This document shows positions 53,871 through 63,890 of a stretch of 64,000 nucleotides of DNA, piece after piece (the stretch's first letter is position 1; the number at the start of each line of letters is the position of its first letter). A program made the translations under genes and the position numbers. A model generated the notes under the pieces. The model ran no database searches and had not been told where the DNA came from. It saw only the letters and a program-made list of their open reading frames with translations. Origin of the DNA: Cryptobacterium curtum DSM 15641 (GTDB taxonomy: Bacteria; Actinomycetota; Coriobacteriia; Coriobacteriales; Eggerthellaceae); contig NC_013170.1 in NCBI RefSeq assembly GCF_000023845.1, forward strand, positions 1,342,501-1,406,500, given 5' to 3'.

Positions 53871-54356
53871 CTATCGAAGCACCCACCAGATAATCCAAGC
53901 CGCCAGCGCAAGAACACCCACGATAAGAATAATGGCGCGCATCCGAGTGAAGGGACCACTCGCATGCAAGTCATCCTCGGTCGTTTGCATGGAGAACTCG
54001 TCGGCACGACGAAACTTCTGTCCTTCGTGGCGTGACAGCTCGTCACGATCAGCTTGAGAACCCGGCGCCTGATCTGCTTCTACCTCTGCTAGCTCTGTCG
54101 TCTTATGCAAGCGGTTTTCATCCGCTAATTCTGTATCTGTCGCCGAAGTCGAGGAAGCTGCTTCGGCGGAATTAGCCGCATCAGCCGAGGGAGAGTGAGG
54201 CTCTGTTGCTTTCCCTCTGTGTGCTATTTCGCGCTCCTCATTCGATGACTGCACAGATTCCCGTGCAGTGGCACGAGACGTTGCCCCAGCCTGAATAACA
54301 ATCTCGTCATCGTCGTCGTTCAGAGAAAGATGGGGGAATCGGTCATCCTTCGACAC
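53871..54356 (-). CDS. Tail-anchored membrane protein of unknown function
   Basis: A 161-residue protein. The start SKDDRFPHLSLNDDDDEIVI is followed by about 100 acidic, Ser/Ala/Glu-rich residues that look disordered. One hydrophobic segment at about 140-158 (ILIVGVLALAAWIIWWVL) ends the protein, so the N-terminal part should face the cytoplasm. I do not recognise the family. It lies between the PASTA-like protein gene and the tRNA-like gene, in the same direction as both. Confidence 0.7.
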   Translation of the reverse strand: MSKDDRFPHLSLNDDDDEIVIQAGATSRATARESVQSSNEEREIAHRGKATEPHSPSADAANSAEAASSTSATDTELADENRLHKTTELAEVEADQAPGSQADRDELSRHEGQKFRRADEFSMQTTEDDLHASGPFTRMRAIILIVGVLALAAWIIWWVLR

Positions 54357-54434
54357 GTTTGCAACCTGCCTTTCATCTGCACATCTGCGCGAATTCGCTG
54401 AAACGTTTCGAAAAATGTCTCAAAAGCGTTTCCT

Positions 54435-54510
54435 GGTGTCCCCTGCAGGATTCGAATCTGCGTTTCCGGATCGAGCATCCGGCGTCCTTGGCCGCTAGAC
54501 GAAGGGGGCA
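54435..54510 (-). tRNA. tRNA-Glu(CTC)-like gene with three structural defects
   Basis: A 76-base cloverleaf with an encoded CCA end. The D arm (GTCTAGCGGCCAAGGAC) and the 3' acceptor strand AGGGGAC are those of tRNA-Glu, and the anticodon (54474-54476) reads CTC for GAG. Three positions depart from normal. Position 33, almost always U, is G (loop TGCTCGA). Pair 53-61, nearly always G-C, is A-C. Pair 2-71 is C-A; in E. coli tRNA-Glu, as I recall, it is U-A with the same 3' strand. It lies 71 bp after hemL, in the direction of the heme operon. It may be decaying, or it may be a tRNA-Glu used other than on the ribosome; the sequence alone does not decide. Confidence 0.8.
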
Positions 54511-54581
54511 TTGAAATGCGGCTTAGCGCCGCTTGTCCATAATAGCTAATGAGCAAACGTAAGCGTGAATAGCATGATCGA

Positions 54582-55868
54582 TTACGCGATTTCAGCAAAG
54601 ACTTCAGCAGCTGCAGCGCAGAAGGCATCGATTTCATCATCGGTGTGTGCCAGTGAAAGGAAGAGAGCCTCAAACTGACTCGGCGCAATAAGATATCCCC
54701 GCGCGAGCATTCCCGAGAAATAACGAGAAAACACATCGGTATCGCAGGACGCAGCATCTTCCCAGCACGTCACTACCTGATCAGTGAAGAAAACGGTTGC
54801 AAGCGAGCCAACGCGGTTGAGCGTTGCTGTAATACCCGATGCTTCGGTAGCAGCAGTCAGCCCCGCTTCCAAGCGCGCACCCACTGCTTCAAGACGCTCA
54901 TACACGCCCGGTTTCTGGAGTTCGCGCAATTGTGCGAGACCTGCTTCCATCGCCACCGGGTTGCCTGAAAGCGTGCCGGCCTGGTACACCGGGCCATCCG
55001 GTGCAAGTTCGTCCATTATGCGGGCCTGACCAGCAAAACACCCCACCGGAAAACCGCCACCAATAATCTTGCCGAAAGTGCACAGATCGGGCACGACGCC
55101 ATATCGTTCTTGTGCACCGCCAAGTGCTGCCCGAAAACCGCTAATAACCTCGTCAAATATAAGAAGTGCACCAAATTCTGAGCAGAGAGCACGCAGCGCT
55201 TCGAGAAAGCCCGGTGCAGGAGGAACCACGCCCATATTCCCCGCAATCGGCTCAACAATAATGGCTGCTATTCCCTGCGGATCAGCCGCAAAGGCATGTT
55301 CAACAGCAGCGACATCGTTATAGGGCAATACAACGGTATCGGCAGCCGCGCCGGCTGTGACACCGGGTGTCCCTGGAATACCAAACGTGGCAACACCACT
55401 GCCCGCCGCAACAAGCAGAGCATCAGAATGCCCGTGATAGTTGCCCGCAAATTTAATGAACTTATCGCGTCCCGTATATCCGCGCGCAAGGCGGATAGCG
55501 CTCATGGTTGCCTCGGTACCGCTTGATACCATGCGCACCTTTTCAGCTGCAGGCACCAACTTGCAAATTTCCTCCGCCATGGTAATTTCCGCTTCGCAAG
55601 GCGCCCCGTATGAAACACCACGATCAAGCTGTGCACGAACGGCGGCCTCAACAGCAGCAGGTCGGTGGCCCAAAATCATGGGACCCCAACTGCCAATAAA
55701 ATCGATGTATTCGTTCCCATCGACATCCCACACATGGCTACCTTCAGCGTGATCGTAAAACACCGGAAGGGCATTCACATTAGCAAAAGCACGCACCGGC
55801 GAGTTCACACCACCGGGAATGCAGGCACGCGCCCGCGCAAAATCGCGTTCAGAACGAGAGTGGATCAT
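54582..55868 (-). CDS. hemL: Glutamate-1-semialdehyde 2,1-aminomutase
   Basis: A 428-residue PLP enzyme that makes 5-aminolevulinate in the C5 pathway, from glutamate-1-semialdehyde supplied by glutamyl-tRNA reductase. It has IPGGVNSPVRAF near the start, ATMSAIRLARGYTGRDK, the PLP pocket LLIFDEVISGF, and the Schiff-base lysine in LCTFGKIIGGGFPVG. Length is usual. The ATG overlaps the end of the AhbAB gene (ATGA). It is the last protein gene of the heme operon and is followed by the tRNA-Glu-like gene. Confidence 0.96.
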   Translation of the reverse strand: MIHSRSERDFARARACIPGGVNSPVRAFANVNALPVFYDHAEGSHVWDVDGNEYIDFIGSWGPMILGHRPAAVEAAVRAQLDRGVSYGAPCEAEITMAEEICKLVPAAEKVRMVSSGTEATMSAIRLARGYTGRDKFIKFAGNYHGHSDALLVAAGSGVATFGIPGTPGVTAGAAADTVVLPYNDVAAVEHAFAADPQGIAAIIVEPIAGNMGVVPPAPGFLEALRALCSEFGALLIFDEVISGFRAALGGAQERYGVVPDLCTFGKIIGGGFPVGCFAGQARIMDELAPDGPVYQAGTLSGNPVAMEAGLAQLRELQKPGVYERLEAVGARLEAGLTAATEASGITATLNRVGSLATVFFTDQVVTCWEDAASCDTDVFSRYFSGMLARGYLIAPSQFEALFLSLAHTDDEIDAFCAAAAEVFAEIA

Positions 55869-57022
55869 CGCATTTCCTCCTCGCAGAAATAGCGCATCGA
55901 TCGCTTTTTGAATTCACGGGTTGAAAAGAGCAAACGCGGTTTCGAAGTCGCAATGCCCGCCTTGATAAGCGCATGATAGATATCATCAGCTGCAGCAAAG
56001 CAGTCTTCTTGATGCGTACCATGAATCATCGTGTAGGCATTGGACGGCCAGGTAGGTTTGCGCAACCGTTCATAGCAATGGGTGACACGGGGGTCATCTG
56101 CCATAATGGCACCTGCTTTTTCGATATCAGCATCGGGAATGTCCCACACTGTCATCGCATTGAATGCATACCCCAGTCGCTGGTGGCGCACGCACGCACC
56201 AAACCGGCGAATCGTTCCATCGGCGATCCAGCGCTTAATGCGATCGATTACCTCATCGACAGACAGCGTAAAGCCTACCTGAGACAGCTGATCAGCTACC
56301 TCGTCAAACGGCAATTCACCCTGTGATATATTTCCCTGCAAAATGCGTACGAGCGCCTTTTCTGCTTCACTTAAACGCGGTGCTGCCTTAGCAACAGCAC
56401 GCGGGTTCGTAAGCGCATGGTTGGCTTTATTGGACGATGGTGTCACGCGCTCTTCATGTGCTGAAGGCTTCTCTTTTGTGGGATGCGAAGAAAGTTTCCC
56501 TTCTATCGAGCACACATCTTCTGTTTCTTGGCTGCCTTTTGGCTGCACTTCGCGCGATTGATTATCCGTCAAATTGAAATCAACTTTGATTTTAAATAGG
56601 TTCTGAGCAGGTAAATCAAGAATATCATCGACGCCAGTGCGCTGCGCAATATCGGACAGAATCGCATCGATCCGTTCTTGCCCATACGCTATAACAGTAA
56701 ACCAAATGTTATAGCGATCCTCACGCTGATAGTTATGCGTTACTTCGGGATACGATGAAACGACTGCAGCAGTTTGCTCAATTTTCGCCGGATCTTCTTC
56801 GGCAAGGGCACACAGTGTGCTGACATAGCCCAAATGCGCCAGGTCAAATACGCCACCAAGGCGCCGAATTTCTTTTTCTCGCAGTCGATTGACCGCCTTA
56901 AGCGCTTCTGGTTCGGTACAACCACACACCTGTGCAATAGCTGCGTAAGGGCGACGTTGCACAGGAAAATCCGCTTGGATCAGCGTAAGAATTTTCTTGT
57001 CAAGAGCAGATAGATCAGACAT
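55865..57022 (-). CDS. Siroheme decarboxylase, AhbA and AhbB fused
   Basis: A 385-residue fusion of the two Lrp/AsnC-like subunits that remove two carboxyl groups from siroheme to give 12,18-didecarboxysiroheme. The first half (1-155) has a winged helix (LSALDKKILTLIQADFPVQ) and REKEIRRLGGVFDLAHLGYVST. The second (about 215-385) has its own winged helix (LSEAEKALVRILQGN) and GTIRRFGACVRHQRLGYAFN followed by NAMTVWDIP. A disordered charged linker of about 60 residues (155-215) joins them. In many organisms the halves are separate genes. It overlaps ahbD by 8 bp and hemL by 4 bp, within the heme operon. Confidence 0.9.
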   Translation of the reverse strand: MSDLSALDKKILTLIQADFPVQRRPYAAIAQVCGCTEPEALKAVNRLREKEIRRLGGVFDLAHLGYVSTLCALAEEDPAKIEQTAAVVSSYPEVTHNYQREDRYNIWFTVIAYGQERIDAILSDIAQRTGVDDILDLPAQNLFKIKVDFNLTDNQSREVQPKGSQETEDVCSIEGKLSSHPTKEKPSAHEERVTPSSNKANHALTNPRAVAKAAPRLSEAEKALVRILQGNISQGELPFDEVADQLSQVGFTLSVDEVIDRIKRWIADGTIRRFGACVRHQRLGYAFNAMTVWDIPDADIEKAGAIMADDPRVTHCYERLRKPTWPSNAYTMIHGTHQEDCFAAADDIYHALIKAGIATSKPRLLFSTREFKKRSMRYFCEEEMR

Positions 57023-61067: not shown

Positions 61068-62920
61068 TTCAGTTGCTCCTCCTTATCAAGCGCTGTCTGC
61101 AAAGCGCTTATTAACCCGGGAATCGTATGGGTATCTGCCTGCACAGAAACGGGAATTGTCAGATCGCGCATGGTATCGCTCGTCACCGGTCCGATGCTCG
61201 CACAGGTTACCGTTTCAAGCAGATGAATTAATTCACTTTCCGGCATAACCGCTGCAAGCATTTCCTTAAAATTGCGCACGGTTGATGACGACGTAAAGGT
61301 GATAGCCGACACTTCACCAGCACGAAGGGACGTCGCAAGATCCTGCGCTGCCACTTCAGCATGGGGAATAACCGTGTCATAGAGCGGCAGTACCTCAACT
61401 TGTGCACCAGCCTGCGTCAATCGATTGGGTAGGGCATCACGCGCAACCGCAGCGCGCGGTAGTAAAACACGCGTACCCCGACCAACGCCGGATTCAACGA
61501 GCGCCTGCGCAACTGATTCAGCAATAAACTTTTCAGGTACGACATCGGGTGATATCCCCTGATTATGCAGCTCAGCGGCTGTTGCGGGGCCAATTGCTGC
61601 TACCTTTACGCCGCCAAGCGAACGAGCATCAAGATGTAATTCATTAAGCGCAGCAAAGAAGCACTGCACACCATTGGCGCTGGTAAACACCACCCAATCG
61701 TACGACTCACGTACATGGGCCGCATCGCTTGCCAGGCGCATGAGGGCTGACCGTATGTGTGCATCAATGGAACGCGGCTTGATGGCAATGGTTGGAAACT
61801 CCACCACCTGCGCGCCCAGCGTTGAAAGACCACTTGAAAGGACACTCGCCTGTTCGCGACTGCGCGTAACAACAATGGACTGTCCCGAAAGCGGGCGGTT
61901 ATCAAACCAGGACAGCTTATCGCGCAGCGAAACAACCTCGCCCACTACAATAATGGCTGGCGCCTGAAAGCCTGCTTCTTCTGCCGCCTGTGCAACACTA
62001 TCCAACGTTGCAGTAAGCACCTCTTGCTTTGGTGTTGTCCCCCATCGCACAAGCGCAACCGGCGTATCCGCAGGACGGCCATGTTCTATCAGCCGCTGTG
62101 AAATCAATGGTAAGTCGCGAATACCCATGTAAAAGCAAAGGGTGTCGCTGCCCTGTGCCAGATGCTCCCAATCGATAGTTGGTGCTTCTTTATCGGGAGT
62201 CTCATGCCCCGTGATCAGTGTTACTGAACTTGCCTGTGTGCGATGTGTCACGGGAATACCCGCATAGGTAGCTGCAGCCACCCCGGCCGTTATGCCAGGC
62301 ACTACTTCAAACGGAATACCAGCATCCACGAGGGCAAGTGCTTCTTCACCACCCCGACCGAATACAAATGGATCGCCGCCTTTCAGGCGCACAATAATCG
62401 CATGATGGTCTTGACGGGTTGCTTGATCCTGCGCTGCCGCCTTATCTAGCTGGCTTATTTCATCTTGCTGCGCTGTTTTGTCATGCGAGACTCCCTTGCC
62501 AGGGTAAGTTGCCGCACCTTGCTGTGTTGCTCCATACTGTTGGGCCGTTTCATACTGTTGGGCTACTGCAATAAGACACTGGTTAATCTCTTCTTGCGTA
62601 ACATGGTCAGAAAAACCCTTCTTGCCCACAAATATCCGCTGAGCAGCCGGATTGACAAAGTGCATGACAGCACTGCTCGCCAGATAGTCGTAGATAACCA
62701 CATCAGCGCACTCAAGCAGCTCTTTCGCGCGCACCGTCAGCAAACCTGGATCTCCCGGTCCAGCCCCAACCAAATACACCGTGGCGCCTAAACACTCAGA
62801 CACAGCGGTACCTTCAACTTTCGCAGCGTCTGATCGTTTCTTGAGCGTCTTGAGCGACTGTTCAGCTAGCATCGAAGTATCAGTGCAGTTTGAAGAAGCG
62901 CTTTGCTCGGTCATCGTCAT
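61064..62920 (-). CDS. Fused uroporphyrinogen-III C-methyltransferase and uroporphyrinogen-III synthase
   Basis: A 618-residue fusion. Residues 45-345 are a SUMT (CobA/CysG-A type) that methylates uroporphyrinogen III to precorrin-2, with VYLVGAGPGDPGLLT, VRLKGGDPFVFGRGGEE and PGITAGVAAATYAGIPVTHR. Residues 347-610 are a HemD-like synthase that closes the macrocycle. Between residues 121 and 173 the SUMT carries a Gln/Ala/Asp-rich insert with QQYETAQQYGATQQG, inside a normally short connection. An unusual N-terminal tail precedes the first beta strand. The ATG overlaps the hemC stop (ATGA) and has GGAGG 8 bp upstream. The fusion places HemC product handling and siroheme entry in one polypeptide. 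Confidence 0.93.
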   Translation of the reverse strand: MTMTEQSASSNCTDTSMLAEQSLKTLKKRSDAAKVEGTAVSECLGATVYLVGAGPGDPGLLTVRAKELLECADVVIYDYLASSAVMHFVNPAAQRIFVGKKGFSDHVTQEEINQCLIAVAQQYETAQQYGATQQGAATYPGKGVSHDKTAQQDEISQLDKAAAQDQATRQDHHAIIVRLKGGDPFVFGRGGEEALALVDAGIPFEVVPGITAGVAAATYAGIPVTHRTQASSVTLITGHETPDKEAPTIDWEHLAQGSDTLCFYMGIRDLPLISQRLIEHGRPADTPVALVRWGTTPKQEVLTATLDSVAQAAEEAGFQAPAIIVVGEVVSLRDKLSWFDNRPLSGQSIVVTRSREQASVLSSGLSTLGAQVVEFPTIAIKPRSIDAHIRSALMRLASDAAHVRESYDWVVFTSANGVQCFFAALNELHLDARSLGGVKVAAIGPATAAELHNQGISPDVVPEKFIAESVAQALVESGVGRGTRVLLPRAAVARDALPNRLTQAGAQVEVLPLYDTVIPHAEVAAQDLATSLRAGEVSAITFTSSSTVRNFKEMLAAVMPESELIHLLETVTCASIGPVTSDTMRDLTIPVSVQADTHTIPGLISALQTALDKEEQLK

Positions 62921-63858
62921 CGCAATGCCTCCAAGATCTCTGTGGCACCCTGACTTACCAAGTCATCAACGATTTTCCCAGCAGCCTCAATTGCTTGATC
63001 AACAGGTGTGCTTGCCTGAGCTCGCAAGAAGCGCGTGCCATCAAGCGTTGCGACGAAAGCATCAATATGAATCATTCGTCTTCCCTGTTCATCTTCCGAT
63101 TCGGTAGCATAAGCACCCATCGGCACCTGGCAACCCCCTTCAAGAGCGCGCATAATATAACGCTCCGCCTCAACAGCACGAAGCGTTGGCTGATGCGATA
63201 TCGCTGTACACAGATGCGCCACCTCGCGGTCATCTGCTCGGGCTTCAAGCGCGATCGCTCCCTGGCCAACAGCAGGAATCATCTCTTCAGTCGGGATAAG
63301 CGACGATATCTGTTCTTCTAACCCCAAGCGATACAGGCCAGCTGCCGCCAAGATAGCAGCATCAAATTCCCCTGCAAGCACGCGCCCAATACGCGTGTCA
63401 ATATTGCCGCGTATTTCGCACGCGGTGACATCAGGACGCAAGCGTGCAAGCTGCGCCACACGCCTCAGCGACCCTGTTGCCACTCGCGCACCTGCGGGAA
63501 GATCAGAAAGTGTCAGCCCTTTAGCAGAAGCAACAATCACGTCGTTCGGATATGCGCGTTCGGTAACCCCTGCAATAAAAAGACCTTTGGGCAGAACCGT
63601 CGGCATGTCTTTCATTGAATGAACGCACACATCTACTTCGCCCTCAAGCAGGCACCGCTCGAGTTCCTTAGTAAATAGACCCTTATCCCCAATTTTTGAA
63701 AGGGCGACATCAAGAATCTTGTCGCCTTTAGTGCGTATTACCTTTACCGCGCAGTGCACTTCAGGAAAAGTCGCCTGTATAAGCGCACGCACTTTTTCAG
63801 CCTGCCACAAAGCAAGCTTGCTTCCCCTGGTTCCAATGGTGATAGTTTTATCGGTCAT
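62917..63858 (-). CDS. hemC: Porphobilinogen deaminase (hydroxymethylbilane synthase)
   Basis: A 313-residue HemC that polymerises four porphobilinogens. It starts TITIGTRGSKLALWQAE and continues with VHSMKDMPTVLP, the RRVAQLARLRPD region, GNIDTRIGRV and, in the third domain, LEGGCQVPMGAYA with the cysteine that holds the dipyrromethane cofactor. ATG 63858 has GAGGAAG at 5-7 bp; the frame is open six codons upstream. It overlaps the SUMT-HemD gene by four bases and follows the partial gene at the window edge by 32 bp. Confidence 0.96.
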   Translation of the reverse strand: MTDKTITIGTRGSKLALWQAEKVRALIQATFPEVHCAVKVIRTKGDKILDVALSKIGDKGLFTKELERCLLEGEVDVCVHSMKDMPTVLPKGLFIAGVTERAYPNDVIVASAKGLTLSDLPAGARVATGSLRRVAQLARLRPDVTACEIRGNIDTRIGRVLAGEFDAAILAAAGLYRLGLEEQISSLIPTEEMIPAVGQGAIALEARADDREVAHLCTAISHQPTLRAVEAERYIMRALEGGCQVPMGAYATESEDEQGRRMIHIDAFVATLDGTRFLRAQASTPVDQAIEAAGKIVDDLVSQGATEILEALR

Positions 63859-63890
63859 ATCGCTTCCTCGACACATAGAATGGCAGAGAT

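What the first reader, a model, noticed from the sequence alone, without database searches (positions are those of the whole stretch)
54435..54510. tRNA-Glu-like gene with non-canonical U33, 53-61 and 2-71 beside the heme operon
The sequence shows a full 76-base cloverleaf with CCA, a CTC anticodon and tRNA-Glu arms, 71 bp after hemL. Yet it lacks U33 (needed for the anticodon U-turn), the near-invariant G53-C61 pair, and has a C-A mismatch in the acceptor. Established knowledge: the C5 pathway draws on Glu-tRNA-Glu. Inference: this could be a tRNA kept for tetrapyrrole synthesis and not translation, or an mRNA-like regulator sensed by GluRS/HemA, or simply a decaying gene copy. The location beside hemL makes the first ideas worth testing.
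Basis: partly seen in the sequence, partly recalled or inferred. Interest (0 to 1): 0.62.

Follow-up and report, generated by a model that had tools for sequence, protein, structure and literature searches.

The report
Bacterial tRNA-Glu dedicated to heme synthesis
Next to the heme genes of this bacterium and many of its relatives sits a conserved extra tRNA for glutamate that seems to have lost the ability to work on the ribosome and to be kept only to feed glutamate into heme production, which would be, to my knowledge, the first such case in bacteria.

Summary
A 76-nt tRNA-Glu(CUC) with encoded CCA lies at 54434-54509 (-), 72 nt after hemL, the last gene of a siroheme-type heme operon. It has G33, A53·C61 and C2·A71. 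All 45 other distinct tRNAs of this genome have U33 and G53-C61, including normal tRNA-Glu(CUC) and tRNA-Glu(UUC). It is not a decaying copy. Relatives occur across the class Coriobacteriia, in the family usually directly downstream of hemL (gaps 8-170 nt measured). In 138 family genomes, 26 of the 50 with hemL carry it and none of the 88 without. Across the family the D arm, T loop, U35-C36 and discriminator are fixed, but position 33 is G, C, A or U and the anticodon loop is 6, 7 or 8 nt; translational tRNA-Glus never vary there (29 of 29 U33). The T stem carries A51-U63, a weak EF-Tu pair known from staphylococcal cell-wall tRNA-Gly and absent from normal tRNA-Glu here. Presence tracks one type of glutamyl-tRNA reductase, including four within-genus switches. 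Best reading: a tRNA charged by the single GluRS, released from EF-Tu and ribosome constraints, used by HemA for 5-aminolevulinate. Expression, charging and HemA use are untested.

The parts
54434..54509 (-). Dedicated-type tRNA-Glu(CUC), 76 nt, with encoded CCA (54434-54436)
54473..54475 (-). Anticodon CUC; U35 and C36 (GluRS determinants) are invariant in the family, position 34 is C or U
54476..54476 (-). G at position 33 in place of the universal U33; this position is G, C, A or U in relatives
54449..54457 (-). A53·C61 closing the T loop (A53-U61 or A53·C61 in nearly all relatives; G53-C61 in all 45 other tRNAs of the genome)
54447..54459 (-). A51-U63 T-stem pair, a weak EF-Tu pair; 22 of 24 relatives in alignment A1, 0 of 29 normal tRNA-Glu
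54484..54500 (-). D arm GUCUAGCGGCCAAGGAC (U11-A24, U13·G22), near-invariant in the family
54510..54581 (-). 72-nt spacer between the hemL stop and the tRNA; no sigma-70-like promoter found on a consensus scan
54582..55868 (-). hemL, glutamate-1-semialdehyde 2,1-aminomutase
   Evidence: NCBIfam TIGR00713, 595.5 bits
55865..57022 (-). Fused AhbA-AhbB siroheme decarboxylase
   Evidence: NF040708 and NF040707
57015..58700 (-). AhbD-like heme b synthase (radical SAM); 487.4 bits against a cut-off of 500
   Evidence: TIGR04545
58725..59711 (-). hemB, porphobilinogen synthase
   Evidence: NF006762
59799..61067 (-). AhbC, 12,18-didecarboxysiroheme deacetylase
   Evidence: TIGR04546
61064..62920 (-). 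CobA-HemD fusion (uroporphyrinogen-III methyltransferase / synthase)
   Evidence: TIGR01469 and PRK05928 models
62917..63876 (-). hemC, hydroxymethylbilane synthase
   Evidence: TIGR00212
63891..64000 (-). 3' end of hemA, glutamyl-tRNA reductase (type A); the gene runs past the window to 65288 in extended coordinates
   Evidence: TIGR01035, 412.6 bits

Best explanation
This is a tRNA-Glu dedicated to tetrapyrrole (heme) synthesis. It is probably transcribed as the last element of the heme operon, cut out and matured like any tRNA, and charged with glutamate by the cell's single GluRS, whose determinants it largely keeps. Its changed T stem (A51-U63, A53·C61) should lower its affinity for EF-Tu, and its anticodon loop is no longer kept fit for decoding (G33 here; 6-8 nt loops and any base at 33 in relatives). 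Glu-tRNA made from it is therefore left for HemA (GluTR), which reduces it to glutamate-1-semialdehyde for HemL. This separates the heme supply from translation and ties it to operon expression. Shown here: sequence, conservation, synteny, co-occurrence and loss of decoding constraint. Inferred: transcription, charging, EF-Tu escape and use by HemA.
For: (1) Position 33 and anticodon-loop length are unconstrained only in this family: 33 is G10/U19/C11/A1 among 41 distinct 7-nt-loop members, and nine more were scored with 6- or 8-nt loops (one of these an ARAGORN trimming artefact), against 29/29 C32-U33 in normal tRNA-Glu. Position 33 needs at least 6 changes on a HemL tree, while the D-arm bases (except position 16), T loop, U35-C36 and A73 need none. 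(2) Presence: 26 of 50 hemL+ and 0 of 88 hemL- genomes, Fisher 1.4e-14, not corrected for kinship. (3) Synteny: directly downstream of hemL on the same strand in most loci, gaps 8-170 nt where measured. (4) It tracks HemA type A (25 of 26 against 0 of 22 for types B and C), with four within-genus switches: g10, g21, g37, g44. (5) GluRS features G1-C72, short variable loop, U35, C36 and U11-A24 are kept (PMC9976931). (6) A51-U63 in 22/24 of A1 against 0/29 normal, as in S. aureus non-proteinogenic tRNA-Gly. (7) Normal U33 tRNA-Glus remain in the carriers checked, so it is spare for translation. (8) One GluRS plus one GluQ-RS-sized paralogue in all 12 genomes tested.
Against: 19 of 41 distinct 7-nt-loop members still have U33, so decoding is not excluded in every species. 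Of the GluRS determinants, the window copy lacks A37 (G37) and U2-A71 (C2·A71). In deeper Coriobacteriia the same tRNA type is not next to hemL. About half of hemL+ family genomes manage without it. The within-genus contrasts may reflect replacement of a whole operon, not tRNA-HemA coevolution as such. There are no expression, charging or enzyme data.
Confidence: 0.83

Rival explanations
1. A dual-use or ordinary translational tRNA-Glu(CUC) with odd bases that still decodes GAG and happens to sit beside hemL.
For: ARAGORN and Rfam accept it; CUC anticodon; U33 kept in about half of the distinct 7-nt-loop members.
Against: A normal CUC isoacceptor exists in the same genome. Position 33 and loop length vary only in this family. 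It tracks hemL and HemA type instead of being universal.
Confidence: 0.07
2. A tRNA-like element that regulates the heme operon or HemA/GluRS, acting as an RNA sensor and not as a glutamate carrier.
For: It lies in the 3' region of hemL with very short spacers; GluRS- and GluTR-facing parts are conserved.
Against: CCA, discriminator, the outer acceptor stem and U35-C36 stay conserved, as a chargeable tRNA requires. In deeper Coriobacteriia it stands apart from hemL, next to tRNA-Val. No extra conserved regulatory structure was looked for or found.
Confidence: 0.05
3. A dedicated non-translational tRNA-Glu, but feeding a different Glu-tRNA-consuming pathway (for example peptide glutamylation) and not HemA.
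For: The non-decoding signature alone does not name the consumer; some deeper members are unlinked to hem genes.
Against: hemL synteny, hemL co-occurrence and HemA-type tracking point to the C5 pathway. No other Glu-tRNA-consuming gene was recognised beside it in the loci read.
Confidence: 0.04
4. A decaying tRNA-Glu pseudogene.
For: Lowest-scoring tRNA of the genome, with mismatches.
Against: Conserved across many genera with 94.8% of stem cells paired, 11 pairs with two-sided changes (0 of 500 shuffles reach this) and invariant D stem, T loop and CCA.
Confidence: 0.01

Closest known systems
Plastid trnE of Balanophora (holoparasitic plants)
   Different: Plastid and eukaryotic; it is the last tRNA of a decaying plastome, not an extra gene kept beside intact translational tRNA-Glus in a bacterial heme operon. 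Here the D arm is near-invariant and U35-C36 is kept.
Staphylococcal non-proteinogenic tRNA-Gly for pentaglycine cell-wall bridges
   Same: Extra isoacceptors charged by the normal synthetase but poorly bound by EF-Tu; A51-U63 replaces G51-C63 (PMC4052509, PMC8007984).
   Different: Different amino acid and pathway; there G18-G19 is replaced, here G18-G19 is kept and the anticodon loop is what is released. EF-Tu binding is not measured here.
Shared Glu-tRNA of C5-pathway bacteria (e.g. Acidithiobacillus ferrooxidans)
   Same: Glu-tRNA is the substrate of GluTR for ALA and heme (PMC4284751).
   [quoted passage not shown] here a separate tRNA appears to be set aside.
Normal tRNA-Glu(UUC) of deeper Coriobacteriia
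   Same: Same GGCCAAGGAC D arm, G1-C72, A53-U61, discriminator and overall sequence; the likely ancestor.
   Different: It keeps loop CUUUCAA with U33 and G51-C63 and is the translational copy.

Membership tests
Canonical elongator tRNA-Glu | U33 in a 7-nt anticodon loop | tested here: not met
   G33 in the window copy; any base at 33 and 6-8 nt loops in relatives
Canonical elongator tRNA-Glu | T-stem closing pair G53-C61 as in the other tRNAs of the genome | tested here: not met
   A53·C61; 45 of 45 other distinct tRNAs are G53-C61
Canonical elongator tRNA-Glu | Cloverleaf, CCA and Glu anticodon | tested here: met
Canonical elongator tRNA-Glu | Decodes GAG on the ribosome | not testable with these tools
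   needs tRNA-seq, polysome or reporter data
GluRS substrate | G1-C72, short variable loop (no 47), U35, C36, U11-A24 | tested here: met
   list from PMC9976931, U11-A24 from my own knowledge
GluRS substrate | U2-A71 and A37 | tested here: not met
   C2·A71 and G37 in the window copy; A37 in 39 of 41 distinct 7-nt-loop members
GluRS substrate | Charged with glutamate | not testable with these tools
   needs an aminoacylation assay
Non-proteinogenic tRNA with weak EF-Tu binding (S. aureus tRNA-Gly type) | A51-U63 in place of G51-C63 | tested here: met
   window copy and 22 of 24 in A1 (G-U and U-G in the other two), 0 of 29 normal tRNA-Glu
Non-proteinogenic tRNA with weak EF-Tu binding (S. aureus tRNA-Gly type) | Loss of G18-G19 | tested here: not met
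   GG invariant
Tetrapyrrole-dedicated tRNA-Glu (Balanophora trnE-like) | GluRS/GluTR-facing parts kept while anticodon-loop decoding features are lost | tested here: met
Tetrapyrrole-dedicated tRNA-Glu (Balanophora trnE-like) | Used by GluTR and not by translation | not testable with these tools
   supported indirectly by hemL synteny and HemA-type tracking
tRNA pseudogene | No conservation, eroding stems | tested here: not met

The most novel reading that the evidence does not exclude
A whole bacterial class carries an ancient tRNA-Glu that has left translation and serves only as the glutamate carrier for HemA, in one family encoded in the heme operon and co-inherited with a matching type of glutamyl-tRNA reductase: a bacterial tRNA gene that is in effect a metabolic cofactor gene, with anticodon loops free to become 6 or 8 nt.
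Probability: 0.7. Interest if true: 0.88.

Novelty: new variant of a known kind. Interest (0 to 1): 0.82.

Why it matters
In C5-pathway organisms Glu-tRNA is described as one pool shared and partitioned between protein and heme synthesis (PMC4284751). A natural tRNA set aside for heme would show that evolution can split the pool. It gives a direct way to measure how GluTR, GluRS and EF-Tu choose substrates, and it shows what a tRNA looks like when only the ribosome's demands are lifted. It also means annotation pipelines count a probably non-decoding tRNA as a GAG decoder in these Actinobacteria. The library searches found no bacterial precedent, but subscription journals are mostly not held.

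Tried and rejected
Decaying copy: rejected by conservation and covariation. Only CTC tRNA-Glu: rejected, a normal one exists. Chance neighbour of hemL: rejected by synteny in many genera. A second, dedicated GluRS: not found, one GluRS and one GluQ-RS-sized paralogue in every genome tested. A promoter of its own: none by a simple scan, which is weak evidence. Literature on a bacterial dedicated tRNA-Glu, or a tRNA beside hemL: nothing found; papers giving A53-U61 as a GluTR determinant were not found, so that point stays from memory. The hemL-gap script recognised only some HemL variants by motif, so one search is the base for synteny. The class-wide pattern itself demands A51 and A53, and that demands A53; frequencies at those positions are therefore quoted from A1, which was not selected on them (one of its rows came in through hemL). 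ARAGORN mis-trimmed L268, so its 6-nt loop is an artefact, and L280's loop register is ambiguous (8-nt in its sisters). A comparison of HemA types A, B and C gave a few type-specific columns that I could not map to tRNA contacts and did not use.

Full report
OBSERVATION. The window holds one tRNA by ARAGORN (54434-54509, minus strand, Glu, anticodon CTC) and by Rfam (RF00005, 43.2 bits, E 7.6e-6). It is the lowest-scoring of 47 tRNAs in a complete 1,617,804-bp genome. G33, A53·C61 and C2·A71 are in the sequence. Among the 46 distinct tRNAs of this genome the other 45 have U33 and G53-C61. Two of these are ordinary tRNA-Glus, CUC and UUC. This copy is therefore a third tRNA-Glu and the only odd one.

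SURROUNDINGS. Everything from hemA to the tRNA reads on the minus strand in one run: hemA, hemC, cobA-hemD, ahbC, hemB, ahbD-like, fused ahbA-ahbB, hemL, then the tRNA 72 nt after the hemL stop. This is the siroheme-dependent heme pathway with its complete C5 entry. No promoter-like site was found between hemL and the tRNA by a simple scan. In relatives the spacer can be as short as 8 or 9 nt. Co-transcription is likely but inferred.

CONSERVATION. A BLAST of the 76 nt against 138 genomes of the family found near-full-length relatives in 26 (77-92% identity outside the window's own copy). A covariance model built from 24 sequences separates the same 26 genomes (91-107 bits) from ordinary tRNA-Glu (77 bits at most). 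In nearly all loci read, the tRNA follows hemL directly on the same strand. In the family the exceptions are G101 (1.1 kb downstream), G032 (same contig, about 5 kb away) and G046 (another contig). One DNA pattern scanned over genomes of 84,980 species gave 26 loci. Those with an informative title are Coriobacteriia or Actinomycetota, among them Slackia exigua, Berryella wangjianweii, Paraeggerthella hongkongensis, a Gordonibacter and Hugonella massiliensis. In deeper Coriobacteriia a similar tRNA exists but stands apart from hemL, often next to tRNA-Val(UAC).

LOSS OF DECODING CONSTRAINT. Of 50 distinct members, 41 have a 7-nt anticodon loop, with position 33 being G in 10, U in 19, C in 11 and A in 1. 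The other nine were scored as 8-nt (six) or 6-nt (three) loops; one of the 6-nt calls (L268) is an ARAGORN trimming artefact and one (L280) is ambiguous with 8-nt, which leaves L237 as the clear 6-nt case. All 29 distinct ordinary tRNA-Glus of the same class have loop CUUUCAA or CUCUCAA. On a HemL tree of 29 proteins, position 33 needs at least six changes. The D-arm bases (except position 16), the T loop, U35, C36 and A73 need none. So the parts needed for folding and for GluRS stay fixed, while the part read by the ribosome drifts. The stems covary: 94.8% of cells paired and 11 pairs with two-sided changes, reached by 0 of 500 shuffles. A decaying copy would not look like this.

EF-TU AND GLURS FEATURES. 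In A1, which was not selected on the T stem, pair 51-63 is A-U in 22 of 24 and G-U or U-G in the rest. Ordinary tRNA-Glus have G-C in 24 and C-G in 5 of 29. A51-U63 in place of G51-C63 is one of the changes described for non-proteinogenic S. aureus tRNA-Gly with weak EF-Tu binding (PMC4052509). Bacterial GluRS determinants are listed as G1-C72, U2-A71, absence of 47, U34, U35, C36 and A37 (PMC9976931). The family keeps G1-C72, the short variable loop, U35 and C36; the window copy departs at 2-71 and at 37. Each of 12 genomes tested has one GluRS and one shorter paralogue of GluQ-RS size, whether or not it has the tRNA. A51-U63 weakening EF-Tu binding of this tRNA, and charging by GluRS, are inferences.

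LINK TO GLUTAMYL-TRNA REDUCTASE. HemL orthologues (E at most 1e-100) occur in 50 of 138 family genomes. All 26 tRNA carriers are among them and none of the 88 others carries it (Fisher 1.4e-14, not corrected for kinship). A HemA tree of 50 proteins shows a type A found in 25 of 26 carriers; G033, an incomplete genome, gave no HemA hit. Type A without the tRNA occurs once, in G036, which is 70% complete. Types B and C are separated by branches of 1.53 and 3.97 changes per column and occur in genomes without the tRNA. The one exception is G024, which has a type A plus a second, type B, HemA. Type A is not shown to be one clade: the tree places type B within it with moderate support. Within four genera (g10, g21, g37, g44) some species have type A plus the tRNA and others have type B or C without it. 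Whole-operon replacement could produce this pattern, so it shows a shared unit more than residue-level coevolution. Class-wide, HemA is found in all pattern-positive genomes except two incomplete ones, G145 and G379.

ORIGIN (inference). Ordinary tRNA-Glu(UUC) of deeper Coriobacteriia has the same GGCCAAGGAC D arm and A53-U61 but U33 and G51-C63. The dedicated type looks like a duplicate of it. In Eggerthellaceae the translational tRNA-Glus are of other types with G53-C61. I recall from older work on barley that A53-U61 matters for GluTR; I could not find that paper in the library, so it is a lead only.

COMPARISON. Balanophora plastid trnE is the closest functional parallel: aberrant, keeping GluRS and GluTR determinants, predicted to serve tetrapyrrole synthesis only, expressed and CCA-tailed (PMC13128298). 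Bacterial C5 organisms are described as sharing one Glu-tRNA pool (PMC4284751). Searches for a bacterial dedicated tRNA-Glu found none, but the library lacks most subscription journals, so novelty is a statement about what could be searched.

VERDICT. The sequence claims are certain. The reading as a non-translational tRNA-Glu serving HemA is well supported by comparative evidence and untested by experiment. It is a new variant of a known kind (dedicated non-translational tRNAs), and to my knowledge the first bacterial one for tetrapyrroles.

Noticed in passing
L227, L234, L236, L259, L277, L281 (group f16 genomes such as G216, G178, G194, G176, G233, G251, G264): tRNA-Glu-like genes with an 8-nt anticodon loop (CUUCUCGG), which ARAGORN labels tRNA-?(Arg|Glu); L237 (G365) has a 6-nt loop.
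   Followed up: partly
window 55865-57022 (-): Siroheme decarboxylase subunits AhbA and AhbB are fused into one 385-aa protein.
   Followed up: no
L195 (G024), and HemA rows: Eggerthellaceae hold three very different HemA types; G024 has both type A and type B, and type C is separated by a branch of almost 4 changes per column.
   Followed up: partly
L049, L050, L053, L066: The C2·A71 acceptor mismatch of the window copy recurs in four other genomes of three other genera (G050, G069, G070, G046).
   Followed up: partly
window 53871-54356 (-): A 161-aa ORF just downstream of the tRNA with a C-terminal hydrophobic stretch has no NCBIfam match; a related sequence lies downstream of the tRNA in L126.
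   Followed up: no
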